Source: Streptomyces sp. Je 1-369 (GTDB taxonomy: Bacteria > Actinomycetota > Actinomycetes > Streptomycetales > Streptomycetaceae). From it: DNA of 64,000 nt. The stretch lies in NCBI RefSeq assembly GCF_026810505.1, contig NZ_CP101750.1, forward strand, positions 2,385,448 to 2,449,447. The letters run 5' to 3'. Shown here one piece after another: positions 20,083-62,906 of this stretch. A program made the position numbers and the translations under genes. The number at the start of each line of letters is the position of its first letter. Positions within the stretch are counted from its first letter, which is position 1. The notes beneath the pieces were generated by a model, which ran no database searches, had not been told where the DNA came from, and was given only the letters and a program-made list of their open reading frames with translations.

Positions 20083-20985
20083 TCAGTAGCGCCGTTCCTG
20101 CTTCTGCTTGCACTCCACGCACAGCGTCGCGCGCGGGAAGGCCTGCATCCGTGCCTTGCCGATCGCGTTGCCGCAGTTCTCGCAGAGGCCGTACGTCCCC
20201 GCGTCGAGGCGCTCCAGGGCGCGCTCGGTCTGCAGGAGCATCTCGCGCGCGTTGGCGGCGAGCGCCATCTCGTGCTCCCGCGTGATGTTCTTCGTGCCGG
20301 TGTCCGCGTCGTCGTCGCCCGCTCCGTCCCCGGAGTCCCGCATCAGCCCCGCAAGGGCGTCCTCGGAGGACGCGATCTCGCTGCCGAGCCGCAGCACCTC
20401 GCTCTGCAGCTCCGTGCGGGCCTCGGCGACCTCTGCCGGGGTCCAGGGGTCCTCCCCGGGCCGGACCGCGAGCTCACCGGGCTCCGCGGCGGCGGCGCGC
20501 GCCTTGGGCACCGCCGTCGGCTGCTTCGCTGCTGTCGCCGTGCCCGGAGTCTTCTTCGCAACCACCGTCGTGGCTCCCGTCGTCTCCGCGGCCTCAGCCG
20601 CACCCTCGGCCGCGGACGCGGCCGTCTTCTTGGCCGTGCTCTTCTTGGCGGTGCTCTTCCTGGCGGTGCTCTTCTTGGCGGCCGCTTTCTTCACCGGGGC
20701 GGCTTCGCCCTCGGTACCGGAAGCATCCGCCTCGACGGCGGTCTTCTTGGCAGCGGTTTTCTCGGCCGCCACCTTCTTGGCCGCCGTCTTCTTGGCCGCC
20801 GTCTTCTTGCCGACGGCCTTCTTGGCCGCGGACCCACCCGCCGGGGCCTTCGCCGCGGTCGACGTCGTGGTCGGTGCCTTCTTCGCCGCCGTCTTCTTGC
20901 CGCTCACATCCTTGGCCGTCCCCGCGGCCGCGGGGGTGGATCTGCCGGACGCCGACTGCTGTACGGCGGTCTTCTTCGCCACCAT
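20083..20985 (-). CDS. DksA/TraR C4 zinc-finger protein with histone-H1-like N-terminus
   Basis: A 300-residue protein of two parts. Residues ~1-165 are low-complexity Lys/Ala/Thr sequence with many AAKKTA or AKKSTA units, resembling eukaryotic H1 tails and the tail of actinobacterial HupS. The C-terminal ~120 residues are a DksA/TraR module: a coiled-coil (ARTELQSEVLRLGSEIASSE, then ANAREMLLQTERALERLDAG) and a zinc finger with CENCG and CVECK. DksA-like proteins reach into the RNA polymerase secondary channel; the basic tail should bind nucleic acid. Start ATG 20985 has an AAGGGG site upstream. Confidence 0.87.
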   Translation of the reverse strand: MVAKKTAVQQSASGRSTPAAAGTAKDVSGKKTAAKKAPTTTSTAAKAPAGGSAAKKAVGKKTAAKKTAAKKVAAEKTAAKKTAVEADASGTEGEAAPVKKAAAKKSTARKSTAKKSTAKKTAASAAEGAAEAAETTGATTVVAKKTPGTATAAKQPTAVPKARAAAAEPGELAVRPGEDPWTPAEVAEARTELQSEVLRLGSEIASSEDALAGLMRDSGDGAGDDDADTGTKNITREHEMALAANAREMLLQTERALERLDAGTYGLCENCGNAIGKARMQAFPRATLCVECKQKQERRY

Positions 20986-21283
20986 GGCCGCGGCCCCTTC
21001 ACATATTGTGATCTTGCTCGCGAATCGTGCTGGGACGATAAATCGACTCCAGGCCCGCGGCAACGGGGCACGCCGCCCGATCCCCCGCCCCACGGGTGCC
21101 GCGAGGCGAGTCTGCAAGCGTTGTGCCCAACTCCCCGGCGGGTAATCCGCGGGACAGGACACGCCCGGAACCGCTCGCCCCGCATGTCGCCATTCGGGTC
21201 AGCCGAGGCCTCCTCCCCCACCCGCCCCGGGACTCCCGGAAAACCGGTCGGAGTACCCTCCCCGCGCGCCGTACACTGGACGG
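20986..21283. other. Divergent promoter region, dksA-like gene and ileS
   Basis: About 300 bp between the start of the minus-strand DksA-like gene and the ileS leader. It must hold both promoters. TACACT at 21272-21277 could be the -10 box for the ileS leader, but no good -35 box is visible. An AT-richer patch near 21000-21050 probably belongs to the DksA-like gene. No ORF here is convincing. Confidence 0.4.
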
Positions 21284-21577
21284 CAGCGAGAAGCGTGGAT
21301 GGGGACGAGTAGCGGCGTACGCAGCCATGAGCGACCCGGGGACGGTGAGAGCCCGGGGGCCGGCGCGACGTGAAGATCACCCCGGAGCCGCCGGAAGAAC
21401 GCCGAAGCGCCACAGCCGAGGCCAGTAGACCCGGTATCGCGACCCCAATGAGGGGGCTCACCGGTGCGAACCCCGCGCCGGAGGGCCAAGGAGGGTGGTA
21501 CCGCGGGAGCGCGCCGCACCAGGCGCACACGGCTCTCGTCCCTCCGACGGAAGGCAGCACATCCGCCGGAGGACTCG
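21284..21577 (+). promoter_or_regulatory. T-box riboswitch controlling ileS (translational type)
   Basis: The leader contains the T-box core AAGGAGGGTGGTACCGCGG at 21488-21506. Upstream, GTGAAGATCACC places an ATC (isoleucine) specifier at 21376-21378 in a short stem I, as in actinobacterial ultrashort ileS T-boxes; AGTAGACCCGG at 21424-21434 fits the stem III region. Downstream there is no U-rich terminator. Instead CCTCCGACGG (21541-21550) can pair with CCGCCGGAGG (21563-21572), the latter containing the Shine-Dalgarno. Uncharged tRNA-Ile should favour the antisequestrator and open the ribosome site. Confidence 0.93.
21541..21572 (+). promoter_or_regulatory. Shine-Dalgarno sequestering hairpin of the ileS T-box
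   Basis: CCTCCGACGG and CCGCCGGAGG pair over ten positions with one A-C mismatch and a 12-base loop. The right arm contains GGAGG (21568-21572), five bases before the TTG start of ileS. This arrangement marks translational, not transcriptional, control. Confidence 0.85.
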
Positions 21578-24500
21578 TTGAATACGCCGCCGCAGTACCG
21601 TCAGGTGCCCGCCCAGGTCGACCTGCCCGCCCTCGAGCACGCCGTGCTCGACTTCTGGCGCGAGCAGAAGATCTTCGCCCGGAGCCTCGAGCAGTCCGAG
21701 GGCCGCCCCGAGTGGGTGTTCTACGAAGGCCCGCCCACCGCCAACGGCATGCCGGGCGCCCACCACATCGAGGCCCGCGTCTTCAAGGACGTCTTCCCGC
21801 GCTTCCGCACGATGCGGGGCTACCACGTGGCCCGCAAGGCCGGCTGGGACTGCCACGGCCTCCCCGTGGAGCTCGCGGTCGAGAAGGAACTCGGGTTCAA
21901 CGGCAAGAAGGATATCGAGGCGTACGGCATCGCCGAGTTCAACGCCAAGTGCCGCGAGTCCGTGACCCGGCACACCGACGCCTTCGCCGAGCTCACGACC
22001 CGCATGGGGTACTGGGTCGACCTCGACGACGCGTACCGCACCATGAACCCCGAGTACGTCGACTCGGTCTGGTGGTCGCTGAAGGAGATCTTCAACAAGG
22101 ACCTCCTCGTCCAGGACCACCGTGTCGCCCCCTGGTGCCCGCGCTGCGGCACGGGCCTCTCGGACCACGAGCTCGCGCAGGGCTACGAGACGGTCGTCGA
22201 CCCTTCCGTCTACGTCCGTTTCCCCCTCACCTCCGGTCCTCTCGCGGGCGAGGCCGCCCTCCTGGTCTGGACGACGACCCCGTGGACCCTCGTCTCCAAC
22301 ACCGCTGTCGCCGCGCACCCCGACGTCACGTACGTCGTCGCGACGGACGGCAAGGAGAAGCTGGTCGTCGCCCAGCCGCTCGTCGAGAAGGCCCTCGGCG
22401 AGGGATGGGAGACCACCGGCGAGACCTTCACCGGCGCCGAGATGGAACGCTGGAACTACCAACGTCCCTTCGAGCTCGTAGAGTTCCCGAGCGCCGGCGA
22501 GGGGACCAATGGGCACAGCCCGGCCCCGGCGCACTACGTCGTGAACGCCGACTACGTCACGACCGAGGACGGCACCGGCCTCGTCCACCAGTCCCCCGCC
22601 TTCGGTGAGGACGACCTCAAGGTCTGCCGTGCGTACGGCCTGCCGGTCGTGAACCCGGTCCGCCCGGACGGCACCTTCGAGGAGGACATCCCGCTCGTAG
22701 GCGGCGTCTTCTTCAAGAAGGCCGACGAAAGCCTGACCAAGGACCTCGACGACCGCGGCCTGCTCTTCAAGCACATCGCCTACGAGCACAGCTATCCGCA
22801 CTGCTGGCGCTGCCACACGGCCCTGCTCTACTACGCGCAGCCGTCCTGGTACATCCGCACCACGGCCATCAAGGACCGCCTCCTCCAGGAGAACGAGAAG
22901 ACCAACTGGTTCCCGGAGTCGGTCAAGCACGGCCGCTTCGGCGACTGGCTGACCAACAACGTCGACTGGGCCCTGTCCCGCAACCGCTACTGGGGCACCC
23001 CGCTGCCCATCTGGCGCTGCGAGGAGGACCACCTCACCTGCGTCGGCTCGCGCGCCGAGCTCTCCGACCTGACGGGCACCGACCAGTCGGGCCTCGACCC
23101 GCACCGCCCGTACATCGACGCGGTCACCTTCGCCTGCCCGCAGGAGGGCTGCGGAGCGACGGCCACGCGCGTGCCGGAGGTCATCGACGCCTGGTACGAC
23201 TCGGGCTCGATGCCGTTCGCGCAGTGGGGCTACCCGCACAAGAACAAGGAGCTCTTCGAGAGCCGCTACCCCGCGCAGTTCATCTCGGAGGCCATCGACC
23301 AGACCCGCGGCTGGTTCTACACGCTGATGGCCGTCGGCACCCTGGTCTTCGACAAGTCGTCCTACGAGAACGTGGTCTGTCTCGGCCACATCCTCGCCGA
23401 GGACGGCCGCAAGATGTCCAAGCACCTGGGCAACACCCTGGACCCGGTCCCGCTCATGGACCAGCACGGCGCCGACGCGGTCCGCTGGTTCATGGCGGCA
23501 GGCGGCTCCCCGTGGGCGGCCCGCCGCGTGGGCCACGGCACCATCCAGGAGGTCGTCCGCAAGACCCTCCTCACGTACTGGAACACGGTCGCCTTCCAGG
23601 CGCTCTACGCCCGTACGTCGAAGTGGGCCCCCAGCGACGCCGACCCGGCGCCCGCCGACCGCCCGCTCCTGGACCGCTGGCTGCTCAGCGAGCTGCACGC
23701 ACTGACCGACCAGGTCACCCAGGCCCTGGAGAGCTACGACACCCAGCGCGCGGGCAAGCTCCTTTCCGTCTTCGTCGACAACCTCTCGAACTGGTACGTC
23801 CGCCGCTCCCGTCGCCGCTTCTGGCAGGGCGACAAGGCGGCGCTGCGCACCCTGCACGAGGTCGTCGAGACGGTCACGCGCCTGCTGGCCCCGCTGACGC
23901 CGTTCATCACGGAGCGCGTCTGGCAGGACCTGATCGTGCCGGTGACGCCCGACGCCCCGGAGTCGGTGCACCTCTCCACCTGGCCGGAGGCGGACCTCTC
24001 CGCCATCGACCCGGACCTGTCCCAGCAGATGGTCCTCGTACGCCGACTCGTCGAGCTCGGCCGCGCCACGCGCGCGGAGTCGGGCGTCAAGACCCGCCAG
24101 CCGCTCTCCCGCGCGCTGATCGCGGCGACGGGCTTCGAGTCCCTCAACCCGGAGCTGCACGCCCAGATCACCGAGGAGCTCAACGTCTCCTCGCTGGCGT
24201 CGCTCTCCGAGGTCGGCGGTTCACTGGTCGACACCACCGCCAAGGCGAACTTCCGGGCGCTCGGCAAGCGGTTCGGCAAGGGCGTCCAGGCGGTCGCCAA
24301 GGCCGTCGCCGACGCGGACGCCGCCGCGCTGTCCCTCGCCCTGCGCGAGGGCACGGCCTCCGTCGAGGTCGACGGCGAGACGGTGACGCTGGCCCCGGAC
24401 GAGGTCATCATCACGGAGACCCCGCGCGAGGGCTGGTCGGTGGCGTCCGAGTCCGGCGCCACGGTCGCCCTTGACCTGGAGATCACCGAGGAACTGCGCC

Positions 24501-24757
24501 GGGCAGGACTGGCCCGCGACGCGATCCGCATGATCCAGGAGGCCCGCAAGAACAGCGGCCTGGACGTCGCGGACCGGATCGCCCTGCGCTGGACCTCGAC
24601 GGACGAGGCGGTGTCCACCGCCCTGGCCGAGCACGCCGGTCTGATCGCGGACGAGGTCCTCGCCACCGACTTCGCCCGGGGCGAGGCGGACGACACGTAC
24701 GGAGAGCCGTTCACGGACGACTCCCTGAAGCTGACGTTCCGCCTCCGCAAGGCGTAA
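21578..24757 (+). CDS. ileS: Isoleucyl-tRNA synthetase, IleRS2 type with GAHH motif
   Basis: A 1059-residue class I aminoacyl-tRNA synthetase starting at TTG 21578. The nucleotide-binding fold opens FYEGPPTANGMPGAHHIEAR. Where HxGH is expected, the protein has G60-A61-H62-H63. The second signature KMSKH is intact in EDGRKMSKHLGNT. The CP1 editing domain (about 200-400), VDWALSRNRYWGTPLPIW and the C-terminal anticodon-binding region are present. Length and sequence are of the eukaryote-like IleRS2 branch, which is generally less sensitive to mupirocin. Expression should be set by the upstream T-box. A strong hairpin follows. Confidence 0.96.
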   Translation: MNTPPQYRQVPAQVDLPALEHAVLDFWREQKIFARSLEQSEGRPEWVFYEGPPTANGMPGAHHIEARVFKDVFPRFRTMRGYHVARKAGWDCHGLPVELAVEKELGFNGKKDIEAYGIAEFNAKCRESVTRHTDAFAELTTRMGYWVDLDDAYRTMNPEYVDSVWWSLKEIFNKDLLVQDHRVAPWCPRCGTGLSDHELAQGYETVVDPSVYVRFPLTSGPLAGEAALLVWTTTPWTLVSNTAVAAHPDVTYVVATDGKEKLVVAQPLVEKALGEGWETTGETFTGAEMERWNYQRPFELVEFPSAGEGTNGHSPAPAHYVVNADYVTTEDGTGLVHQSPAFGEDDLKVCRAYGLPVVNPVRPDGTFEEDIPLVGGVFFKKADESLTKDLDDRGLLFKHIAYEHSYPHCWRCHTALLYYAQPSWYIRTTAIKDRLLQENEKTNWFPESVKHGRFGDWLTNNVDWALSRNRYWGTPLPIWRCEEDHLTCVGSRAELSDLTGTDQSGLDPHRPYIDAVTFACPQEGCGATATRVPEVIDAWYDSGSMPFAQWGYPHKNKELFESRYPAQFISEAIDQTRGWFYTLMAVGTLVFDKSSYENVVCLGHILAEDGRKMSKHLGNTLDPVPLMDQHGADAVRWFMAAGGSPWAARRVGHGTIQEVVRKTLLTYWNTVAFQALYARTSKWAPSDADPAPADRPLLDRWLLSELHALTDQVTQALESYDTQRAGKLLSVFVDNLSNWYVRRSRRRFWQGDKAALRTLHEVVETVTRLLAPLTPFITERVWQDLIVPVTPDAPESVHLSTWPEADLSAIDPDLSQQMVLVRRLVELGRATRAESGVKTRQPLSRALIAATGFESLNPELHAQITEELNVSSLASLSEVGGSLVDTTAKANFRALGKRFGKGVQAVAKAVADADAAALSLALREGTASVEVDGETVTLAPDEVIITETPREGWSVASESGATVALDLEITEELRRAGLARDAIRMIQEARKNSGLDVADRIALRWTSTDEAVSTALAEHAGLIADEVLATDFARGEADDTYGEPFTDDSLKLTFRLRKA

Positions 24758-24900: not shown

Positions 24901-26010
24901 TCAGTTGTCGTCCTCGTCGATGAGGAAGCCGCGCATCGGCGACGGAGCCTGCTGCATCGGGGCGGGGCCCTGCGGCCGCACCGGCGCCATCGGCTGGGTC
25001 ATCGCGGGAGACATCTGCTGCTGGCCGCCGTAGGACGGGCCGCCGTTGGGCTGGTTGTTGCCCATCGACTGGTTGCCGCCGTAGGACGGGGCACCCGCAC
25101 CGGCCGGAGCCATCGACGGCGCCGGGGACGGCGGCAGCGAGGCGGTGGCCGGAGTGCGCGGGGGCGCCAGCGAGTCGTCGGCCTGGGTCTCCAGCTGACG
25201 CAGCTGCGACTCCAGGTACGACTTCAGACGCGTGCGGTACTCGCGCTCGAAGCCGCGCAGGTCCTCGACCTTGCGCTCCAGCGTGGCGCGAGCGGACTCC
25301 AGGGAGCCCATCGCGACGCGGTGCTTCTCCTGCGCGTCCCGCTCCAGGGCGTCGGCCTTGGCACGGGCGTCACGCTCAAGACCCTCGGCGCGCGAACGGG
25401 CCTCGCCGACGATCTTGTTGGCCTCGGAACGGGCCTCCGCGATCGCCTGGTCGGCGGTCTGCTGCGCAAGGGAGAGCACACGGGCGGCGCTGTCGCCACC
25501 GGGGCCCTGACCGGGCTGCGGCATCTGCGGGCCGCCCATGGGACCGCCGCCCATCGGACCGCCCATGGGGCCGCCCATCGGACCCTGCCCCATCGGGCCC
25601 GGACCCTGCTGACCGCCCTGCGGACCGTGTCCACTGGGACCTGCGGGCAGCTGCGGAGCGCCGCCGGGCAGCTGCGGCGGGCCGCCCATGGGGCCACCCA
25701 TCTGCTGCTGCGGCGGGACCGGCTGCGGACCCGATATAGCGGCGGGCACGGGGGCGCCGGGACCGCGCTGGTCCTGCGGGCCGGGGCCGCCGTCGGGGCC
25801 CTTGCGCATCCCGCCCTGCTGCTGGTTCTGCGCGGCGGCACGGGTGGCCGCGGCGAGCTTGGCGCGCAGGTCCTCGTTCTCACGGAGGAGCCGCGTCAGT
25901 TCGGCTTCGACCTCATCGAGGAAGGCATCGACCTCGTCCTCGTCATAGCCTTCTCGGAGGCGGACGGTCGTGAACTGTTTGTTCCGCACGTCCTCGGGGG
26001 TCAACGGCAT
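24901..26010 (-). CDS. divIVA: DivIVA (Wag31), polar growth determinant
   Basis: A 369-residue coiled-coil protein that gathers at curved membrane and directs tip growth in actinobacteria. The lipid-binding N-terminus MPLTPEDVRNKQFTTVRLRE and the first coiled coil (DEVDAFLDEVEAELTRLLRE) occupy residues 1-60. A long Pro/Gly/Met/Gln linker with GPMGG repeats spans about 65-165. The second coiled coil lies at about 165-275, and a disordered Pro/Gln-rich tail ends RGFLIDEDDN. The middle linker is far longer than in rod-shaped actinobacteria, as is typical of Streptomyces. It closes the dcw region. Confidence 0.96.
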   Translation of the reverse strand: MPLTPEDVRNKQFTTVRLREGYDEDEVDAFLDEVEAELTRLLRENEDLRAKLAAATRAAAQNQQQGGMRKGPDGGPGPQDQRGPGAPVPAAISGPQPVPPQQQMGGPMGGPPQLPGGAPQLPAGPSGHGPQGGQQGPGPMGQGPMGGPMGGPMGGGPMGGPQMPQPGQGPGGDSAARVLSLAQQTADQAIAEARSEANKIVGEARSRAEGLERDARAKADALERDAQEKHRVAMGSLESARATLERKVEDLRGFEREYRTRLKSYLESQLRQLETQADDSLAPPRTPATASLPPSPAPSMAPAGAGAPSYGGNQSMGNNQPNGGPSYGGQQQMSPAMTQPMAPVRPQGPAPMQQAPSPMRGFLIDEDDN

Positions 26011-61454: not shown

Positions 61455-61591
61455 CCGATCACTCTAGGGCGGTTGTCGAGGGCGCCCTCAGGTGTGGTCG
61501 GGGAGATCTCTGACACAACGTCACCGCCCATACCCGGACAGCTCCCCTACTGCCGCACGAAGCGACGGGCTAGGGTGGCCCGTGCAGAGCA

Positions 61592-61686
61592 CTCGCGGGA
61601 GCCCGGACGCACCGGGCTGAGAGGGAGGCTGGGACGGCCTCCGACCGTACGAACCTGATCCGGGTCATGCCGGCGAAGGGAGGGGC
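61592..61686 (+). promoter_or_regulatory. TPP riboswitch for thiOSG
   Basis: CTGAGA at 61617-61622 and ACCTGATCCGGGTCATGCCG (61653-61672) with GCGAAGGGAG (61673-61682) are the diagnostic THI-box elements. The Shine-Dalgarno of thiO (GGGAGGGG, 61678-61685) overlaps the 3' end of the aptamer, so thiamin pyrophosphate should close the ribosome site. TAGGGT at 61571-61576 may be the -10 box. Confidence 0.95.
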
Positions 61687-61695
61687 TGGACGCCC

Positions 61696-62906
61696 ATGCA
61701 TCCACGTACGACATCACCATCCGCCACCTCTGACGTCCTGATCGTCGGAGGCGGCATCATCGGCCTGGTCACGGCCTGGCGGACCGCGCAGCGGGGGCTC
61801 TCCGTGGCGGTCGTGGACCCCGAGCCGGGCGGCGGCGCCGCCCAGGTCGCGGCGGGCATGCTGGCCGCCGTCACCGAACTCCACTACGGCGAGCAGACGT
61901 TGCTCGGCCTCAACATCGCCTCCGCGCGGCGCTATCCGGCGTTCGCCGACGAGCTGACCGAGGCGAGCGGCCACGACCTCGGCTACCGCGCGTGCGGCAC
62001 GCTCGCCGTCGCGCTGGACTCCGACGACCGTGCCCACCTGCGCGAACTGCACGCCCTGCAGCAGCGTTCGGGCCTGGAGTCCGAGTGGCTGAACGGCCGC
62101 GAGTGCCGTCGCCTCGAACCGATGCTGGCGCCGGGTGTGCGCGGCGGCCTTCGGGTCGACGGCGATCACCAGATCGACCCGCGGCGGCTCGCGGGCGCGC
62201 TCGTGGTGGCCTGCGAGCGGGCCGGTGTGGTCTTCCACCGCGCCTGGGCCGAGCGTCTGTCGGTCGTACGCGACCGTGCGCACGGCGTCGTCCTCGCGGA
62301 CGGCACCGAGCTGGGCGCGGGTCTGACGGTCCTCGCGGCGGGCAGCCTCAGCGGGCGCCTCGCGGGCGTCCCCGACGACGTCCTGCCGCCCGTGCGCCCC
62401 GTCAAGGGCCAGGTCCTGCGTCTTACGGTGCCCGGGCCCTACGCCCCGTTCCTGAGCCGCACCGTGCGGGCCGTGGTGCGCGGCAGCCACGTCTACCTCG
62501 TGCCGCGCGAGAACGGCGAGCTCGTCGTCGGCGCGACCAGCGAGGAGCTCGGCTGGGACACCACGGTCACCGCGGGCGGCGTGTACGAACTGCTGCGGGA
62601 CGCGCACGAGCTCGTGCCCGGCATCACCGAGCTGCCGCTGACCGAGACCCGCGCGGGTCTGCGCCCCGGCTCCCCCGACAACGCGCCGATGCTCGGCCCG
62701 ACACGGCTCGACGGGCTCCACCTGGCCACCGGGCACTTCCGCAACGGCGTCCTCCTGACGCCCGTCACGGGCGACGTCATGGCGCACGCCCTGACCACGG
62801 GCGCGCTCCCGGAAGAGGCGCTCCCGTTCACCCCGCGCCGCTTCGACGGCGCGTCCCCCGAGATCTCCGCCCCGGCCCGCACGCAGCACGACACGGAGCA
62901 GCCCGC

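What the first reader, a model, noticed from the sequence alone, without database searches (positions are those of the whole stretch)
21755..21766. IleRS with GAHH in place of HxGH: predicted mupirocin hyper-resistance
Codons 60-63 of ileS read Gly-Ala-His-His, so the first and third positions of the class I HxGH signature are swapped. HIGH is among the most conserved motifs of class I synthetases and is needed for activation. Certain bacterial IleRS2 enzymes with a GxHH motif have been reported to be extremely resistant to mupirocin while remaining active. The rest of the protein (KMSKH, IleRS2 type, 1059 residues) is intact and it is the only ileS here, under a T-box, so it is presumably the housekeeping enzyme. 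I infer strong intrinsic mupirocin resistance.
Basis: partly seen in the sequence, partly recalled or inferred. Interest (0 to 1): 0.7.

Follow-up and report, generated by a model that had tools for sequence, protein, structure and literature searches.

The report
Streptomyces IleRS with swapped HIGH motif
This Streptomyces enzyme that attaches isoleucine to its tRNA has two letters of its catalytic motif swapped, a natural change already shown in relatives to make the enzyme nearly immune to the antibiotic mupirocin, so the finding is correct but ordinary for this genus.

Summary
ileS (21578-24757, +, TTG start, 1059 aa) has Gly-Ala-His-His at codons 60-63 (21755-21766). It is the only ileS found in the 8.82-Mb one-contig genome and lies behind a translational T-box. 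GAHH looks fixed in the genus: 121 of 121 proteins read, 80 of 80 loci. In Actinobacteriota, 165 of 252 genomes read carry the swap. Small extensions: X is Thr, Ala, Phe or Ser in 101 of those 165; two enzymes inside a swapped family read HIGH again; one genome seems to have acquired the swapped type laterally; 161 of 163 swapped enzymes have Thr at the E. coli Tyr-59 position. Resistance of this strain itself is inferred, not measured.

The parts
21578..24757 (+). ileS, type 2 isoleucyl-tRNA synthetase, 1059 aa, TTG start
21755..21766 (+). GAHH, the swapped class I signature (codons 60-63)
21737..21739 (+). Thr54 codon, at the position of E. coli IleRS Tyr-59
   Evidence: column table; Tyr-59 and NKIL numbering from PMC4861432 passages
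23411..23425 (+). KMSKH, second class I signature (codons 612-616)
21293..21388 (+). T-box leader, 5' part; AUC at 21376-21378 read as the Ile specifier
   Evidence: RF00230 41.6 bits, below the gathering score 93; GAA-N-AUC found in 74 of 80 named leaders
21488..21543 (+). T-box leader, antisequestor part, UGGU at 21496-21499
   Evidence: RF00230 15.7 bits, E 0.29, below the gathering score; GTGGTACCGCG found in 80 of 80 named leaders
21538..21574 (+). hairpin that covers the Shine-Dalgarno sequence GGAGGA (21568-21573)
   Evidence: -19.2 kcal/mol, z -2.29

Best explanation
This is the housekeeping type 2 isoleucyl-tRNA synthetase of a Streptomyces, carrying the known swapped signature G-x-H-H. 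[quoted passage not shown] The same His62 is expected to clash with mupirocin, so the Ki should be in the millimolar range. The gene is probably induced at translation by uncharged tRNA-Ile through the T-box. Shown here: sequence, single copy, uniformity in the genus, T-box parts. Shown in the literature for the S. griseus enzyme or for other or engineered IleRS2: activity, Ki, structure. Inferred: that this strain's enzyme behaves the same and that the cells are resistant.
For: Motif and frame. Intact IleRS2 by profile and solved relatives. Every PF00133 match of the own genome is accounted for: ileS, two ValRS, LeuRS, MetRS, MshC (the piece L008 lies in the same frame as the LeuRS piece L006). 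955 identical of 1064 aligned columns to L222, labelled S. griseus. S. griseus IleRS: Ki 10 mM, supports growth of E. coli lacking functional IleRS (PMC4861432 passages). GXHH mechanism and structure 8C8W (PMC10485003).
Against: No kinetic or MIC data for this strain. Nothing found shows that the L222 strain is the S. griseus strain assayed. The published steric clash with mupirocin is a model made by superposition, not a solved complex. The legend of Fig. 1 in PMC10485003 does not list Ala among the X residues, though S. griseus is named as a carrier of the same motif.
Confidence: 0.94

Rival explanations
1. The GAHH copy is a damaged or specialised paralogue and a canonical IleRS does the housekeeping work.
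For: The first His of HIGH is normally needed for activation (PMC10485003).
Against: No second IleRS in a one-contig genome scored 100% complete; the other class Ia frames are ValRS, alt_ValS, LeuRS, MetRS and MshC. Identical motif in 121 of 121 and 80 of 80 relatives read.
Confidence: 0.01
2. The swap in Streptomyces is not kept for mupirocin resistance but is a neutral or catalytic feature of this IleRS2 lineage, inherited and held by epistasis; resistance is a by-product.
For: The swap is fixed over whole lineages: 165 of 252 actinobacterial genomes read. Natural D. radiodurans ALHH has no catalytic trade-off against canonical IleRS2 (PMC10485003).
Against: Two published gains and a ~10^3-fold resistance effect fit selection (PMC10485003); one apparent lateral gain here, G225. 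None of this excludes neutrality.
Confidence: 0.4
3. Base-calling or assembly error at the motif.
For: None found.
Against: Identical motif in the relatives read; no stop in the frame.
Confidence: 0.005

Closest known systems
Streptomyces griseus IleRS2 (SgIleRS; PMC4861432, motif noted in PMC10485003)
   Same: Same genus, same IleRS2 type, swapped motif; L222, labelled S. griseus, reads GAHH with 955 of 1064 columns identical
   Different: Nothing of note found; kinetics not measured for the window's enzyme
Deinococcus radiodurans IleRS2 (ALHH; Ki 6.6 mM, PMC10485003)
   Same: Swapped first and third positions
   Different: Ala in the first position; not compared in sequence here
P. megaterium GVHH-IleRS2 mutant, structure 8C8W (PMC10485003)
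   Same: Aligns over residues 20-1029 with GVHH under GAHH
   Different: Engineered from HVGH; activity somewhat reduced and Ki 460 uM
MupA/MupB acquired mupirocin-resistance IleRS (NCBIfam NF000257, NF000258)
   Same: IleRS relatives (761.8 and 736.5 bits)
   Different: Far below the curated cut-off of 1900; here the sole chromosomal ileS

Membership tests
Type 2 IleRS (IleRS2) | Closer in sequence to IleRS2 than to IleRS1 | tested here: met
   T. thermophilus 1ile 896.5 and P. megaterium IleRS2 870-883 bits; P. megaterium IleRS1 (8c9e, 8c9f) and 1ffy/1qu2 326-335 bits
Type 2 IleRS (IleRS2) | No Tyr at the E. coli Tyr-59 position, no NKIL signature | tested here: met
   Thr54; Ala66-Arg67 where 40 of 40 IleRS1 have Asn-Lys
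G/AXHH hyper-resistant IleRS2 | Gly or Ala first and His third in the signature | tested here: met
   GAHH
G/AXHH hyper-resistant IleRS2 | Mupirocin Ki in the millimolar range with normal activation | not testable with these tools
   Published for S. griseus (10 mM) and D. radiodurans (6.6 mM), not for this strain
Translational ileS T-box of Actinobacteria | T-box sequence, Ile specifier, hairpin over the Shine-Dalgarno sequence | tested here: met
   Two RF00230 pieces below the gathering score, AUC at 21376-21378, hairpin, conservation; type described in PMC1262725 (passages)
Translational ileS T-box of Actinobacteria | Response to uncharged tRNA-Ile | not testable with these tools
   Needs an experiment
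MupA/MupB | Score over the curated NCBIfam cut-off of 1900 bits | tested here: not met
   761.8 and 736.5 bits

The most novel reading that the evidence does not exclude
The swap is reversible, but only on a permissive background. In Actinobacteriota it occurs in IleRS2 enzymes with a small residue (nearly always Thr) at the E. coli Tyr-59 position and Arg at column 67, and never in the sister IleRS2 type with Phe and Gly/Ser there. Two enzymes inside a swapped family have gone back to HIGH, and both share Asp50, Ala64, Thr66 and Phe602, which would make these a coupled second shell. If so, the change at the editing-control residue came first and opened the way to hyper-resistance.
Probability: 0.25. 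Interest if true: 0.45.

Novelty: already known. Interest (0 to 1): 0.14.

Why it matters
It shows that a swapped signature in a Streptomyces genome is the normal, chromosomal, intrinsic state and not an acquired resistance gene, which helps when resistance is read from environmental genomes. The census adds two natural reversions and one apparent lateral replacement that could be used to ask when the most conserved motif of class I synthetases can be rearranged.

Tried and rejected
A second, canonical ileS was sought in the own genome and not found. The other PF00133 matches were scanned with NCBIfam: ValRS at 3.06 Mb (1185 bits), MetRS, LeuRS and MshC, alt_ValS at 7.62 Mb (1463.7 bits). The eighth match, L008, was not scanned; it lies in the same 983-codon frame as the LeuRS piece.

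MupA/MupB membership was considered and rejected on score. Assembly error was considered and rejected.

Coupled residues: 45 of 962 columns separate the 163 swapped from the 45 HYGH-type enzymes (44 HYGH, one HFGN) with an overlap of 0.05 or less. That split is largely deep clade against deep clade, so ancestry explains it as well as coupling does. Beside 60 and 62, the filter for changes shared by both reverted enzymes gave columns 50, 64, 66 and 602, and also 85, 130, 134 and 290, to which I can give no role. T. thermophilus and P. megaterium IleRS2 have Glu50, Thr54 and Arg67 with HVGH, so none of these is strictly tied to the swap.

Literature: seven searches. Seen beyond the listing: PMC10485003 (parts 1-4 of 7, and passages), PMC4861432 (passages), PMC1262725 (passages). 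In what I read, reversion to the canonical motif is reported for Deinococcus-Thermus only; supplementary files and the source alignment were not read, so I do not claim that actinobacterial reversions are unreported. I found no MIC of mupirocin for Streptomyces in these listings, without opening the listed papers.

No structure prediction was run, since solved structures with and without the swap exist.

Full report
OBSERVATION. ileS runs from a TTG at 21578 to its stop at 24755-24757 on the + strand and encodes 1059 residues. Bases 21755-21766 are GGC GCC CAC CAC, in frame, codons 60-63, Gly-Ala-His-His. The second signature reads KMSKH at 23411-23425. The protein passes TIGR00392 ileS at 899.6 bits (cut-off 621.4) and has tRNA-synt_1, Anticodon_1 and DUF5915 domains.

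TYPE AND COPY NUMBER. The best solved relatives are 1ile (T. thermophilus IleRS, organism recalled; 896.5 bits) and the P. megaterium IleRS2 chains 8c8u, 8c8v, 8c8w and 8c9d (870-883 bits); P. megaterium IleRS1 (8c9e, 8c9f) and 1ffy/1qu2 score 326-335 bits (identities of the 8C8/8C9 entries from PMC10485003). So it is IleRS2. In the own genome (G000, 8,820,026 bases, one contig, completeness 100, contamination 1.54) it is the only strong match to itself; five further matches have 26-31% identity and lie in two frames. A PF00133 search gives eight matches: ileS; ValRS (1185 bits, cut-off 704), MetRS (two pieces), LeuRS (two pieces, one scanned) and MshC; and alt_ValS (1463.7 bits, cut-off 900).

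HOW ORDINARY IT IS IN THE GENUS. The protein search scored 8000 candidates, all matching, and listed 120. These 120 and P0001 read PPTANGMPGAHH and KMSKH: 121 of 121. All 80 read GAHH. L222, titled S. griseus subsp. griseus NRRL WC-3645, has 955 identical of 1064 aligned columns. Both lists hold the nearest relatives only, so 'fixed in the genus' is an inference from them.

WHAT IS KNOWN. Brkic et al. 2023 (PMC10485003; parts 1-4 of 7 read; passages) reported 86 G/AXHH enzymes in a set of 379 IleRS, none of them IleRS1, and that S. griseus IleRS2 carries the motif. D. radiodurans ALHH has a mupirocin Ki of 6.6 mM, falling 823-fold when changed to HVGH. In their structures the third His takes the place of the first; [quoted passage not shown] mupirocin modelled into the swapped site clashes with the third His. 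Cvetesic et al. 2016 (PMC4861432; passages) measured a Ki of 10 mM for the S. [quoted passage not shown] coli lacking functional IleRS.

T-BOX. The gathering scan of the window finds only a TPP riboswitch. A relaxed scan finds two RF00230 pieces upstream of ileS: 21293-21388 (41.6 bits, E 6.3e-8) and 21488-21543 (15.7 bits, E 0.29); the gathering score is 93. They are the only RF00230 matches in the genome up to E 10. AUC stands at 21376-21378, which I read from the alignment as the specifier, and UGGU at 21496-21499. A hairpin at 21538-21574 covers the Shine-Dalgarno sequence GGAGGA (-19.2 kcal/mol, z -2.29); part of its upstream strand can instead pair with the T-box side (21484-21548 folded alone: -32.5 kcal/mol, z -1.91). 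Folded together (21484-21583, -47.9 kcal/mol) the sequestering hairpin is kept, as expected without tRNA. In the 80 named leaders GTGGTACCGCG was found in 80, GAA-N-AUC-A-C/T-C in 74, and GGAGG near the start in 77. This is the translational ileS T-box that PMC1262725 describes for Actinobacteria (passages).

CENSUS. Phylum draw: 149 genomes searched, all with some match; motif read in 146. Not read: G010 (no IleRS-like match on re-search), G128 (IleRS-like match split over two frames of one contig, not fetched) and G139 (match begins at residue 92 at a contig edge). Result: 85 swapped, 61 canonical at the first and third positions. Class draw: 148 genomes searched, 13 already read in the phylum draw, 106 read anew: 119 of 148. 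Of the 119, 84 are swapped and 35 HYGH. Of the 29 unread, 21 have matches of 62-69% identity and were left out for the fetch cap, 5 have partial or split matches, and 3 (G175, G179, G187) show no IleRS-like match. Together 252 genomes: 165 swapped, 87 canonical. X in the 165: Thr 53, Val 46, Ala 22, Phe 15, Ile 13, Ser 11, Leu 5. The legend of Fig. 1 in PMC10485003 names Ile, Val, Leu, Met and Tyr; Thr, Ala, Phe and Ser, 101 of 165, widen that list. No HxHH or GxGH was seen among the 252.

TREE. 250 of the 252 were aligned (L095 and L117, matched over fewer than 600 residues, were dropped) and a FastTree built. Rooted on 40 IleRS1, parsimony needs 4 changes between swapped and canonical. Two of these are single enzymes reading HIGH, L037 (G103) and L040 (G070), inside a nine-member clade (support 1.0) of one family, whose seven others read GIHH or GVHH. 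One or two events is not settled: L037 pairs with L032 (0.96), L040 with L045 and L036 (0.75). G103 has 7% contamination; neither genome shows a second IleRS-like match above 30% identity. Several deep branches have very low support (0.005, 0.106) and are not used.

RESIDUES NEAR THE MOTIF. Column 54 is Thr in 161, Ser in 1 and Tyr in 1 of 163 swapped IleRS2, Phe in 45 of 45 of the HYGH-type clade (44 HYGH, one HFGN), and Tyr in 40 of 40 IleRS1. It is the E. coli Tyr-59 position: IleRS1 columns 66-67 are Asn-Lys in 40 of 40, at the right distance for NKIL 71-74 of that enzyme. Column 67 is Arg in 163 of 163 swapped, Gly or Ser in 45 of 45 HYGH-type. Both reverted enzymes keep Thr54 and Arg67. 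The T. thermophilus and P. megaterium IleRS2 chains have Thr54 and Arg67 with HVGH. Against a coupling claim: 45 of 962 columns separate the groups as cleanly, as deep ancestry would give. That Thr54 came first and made the swap possible is a hypothesis only.

LATERAL REPLACEMENT. In family f66, 11 of 12 genomes read have HYGH and one (G225; one contig, completeness 100, contamination 0) has GTHH as its only IleRS match. Two others of its genus (G167, G235) have HYGH. In the tree its enzyme, L300, falls in a ten-member clade (support 0.95) whose nine others all come from family f61. The swapped type has probably moved between families.

VERDICT. A correct observation and a correct interpretation of something already described in the genus. 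Interest is low for the window; the reversions and the replacement are modest extras.

Noticed in passing
G103 has 7% contamination.
   Followed up: partly
   Followed up: partly
L003 1435-3981 (own genome, about 7.62 Mb): A second valyl-tRNA synthetase, NCBIfam alt_ValS (1463.7 bits, cut-off 900), beside the ordinary ValRS at 3.06 Mb. Its role was not studied.
   Followed up: partly
   Followed up: no
window 61585-61698 (+): TPP riboswitch, the only Rfam match over its gathering score in the window (60.6 bits).
   Followed up: no
window 20083-21162 (-) and 24901-26010 (-): Flanking genes: a DksA/TraR-like zinc-finger protein with a long Lys/Ala-rich N-terminal part, and a DivIVA/Wag31-like protein (NCBIfam matches below the equivalog cut-offs).
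   Followed up: no
window 21458-24160 (-): A 900-codon open frame antisense to ileS, most likely a shadow of the high-GC coding strand; not tested.
   Followed up: no
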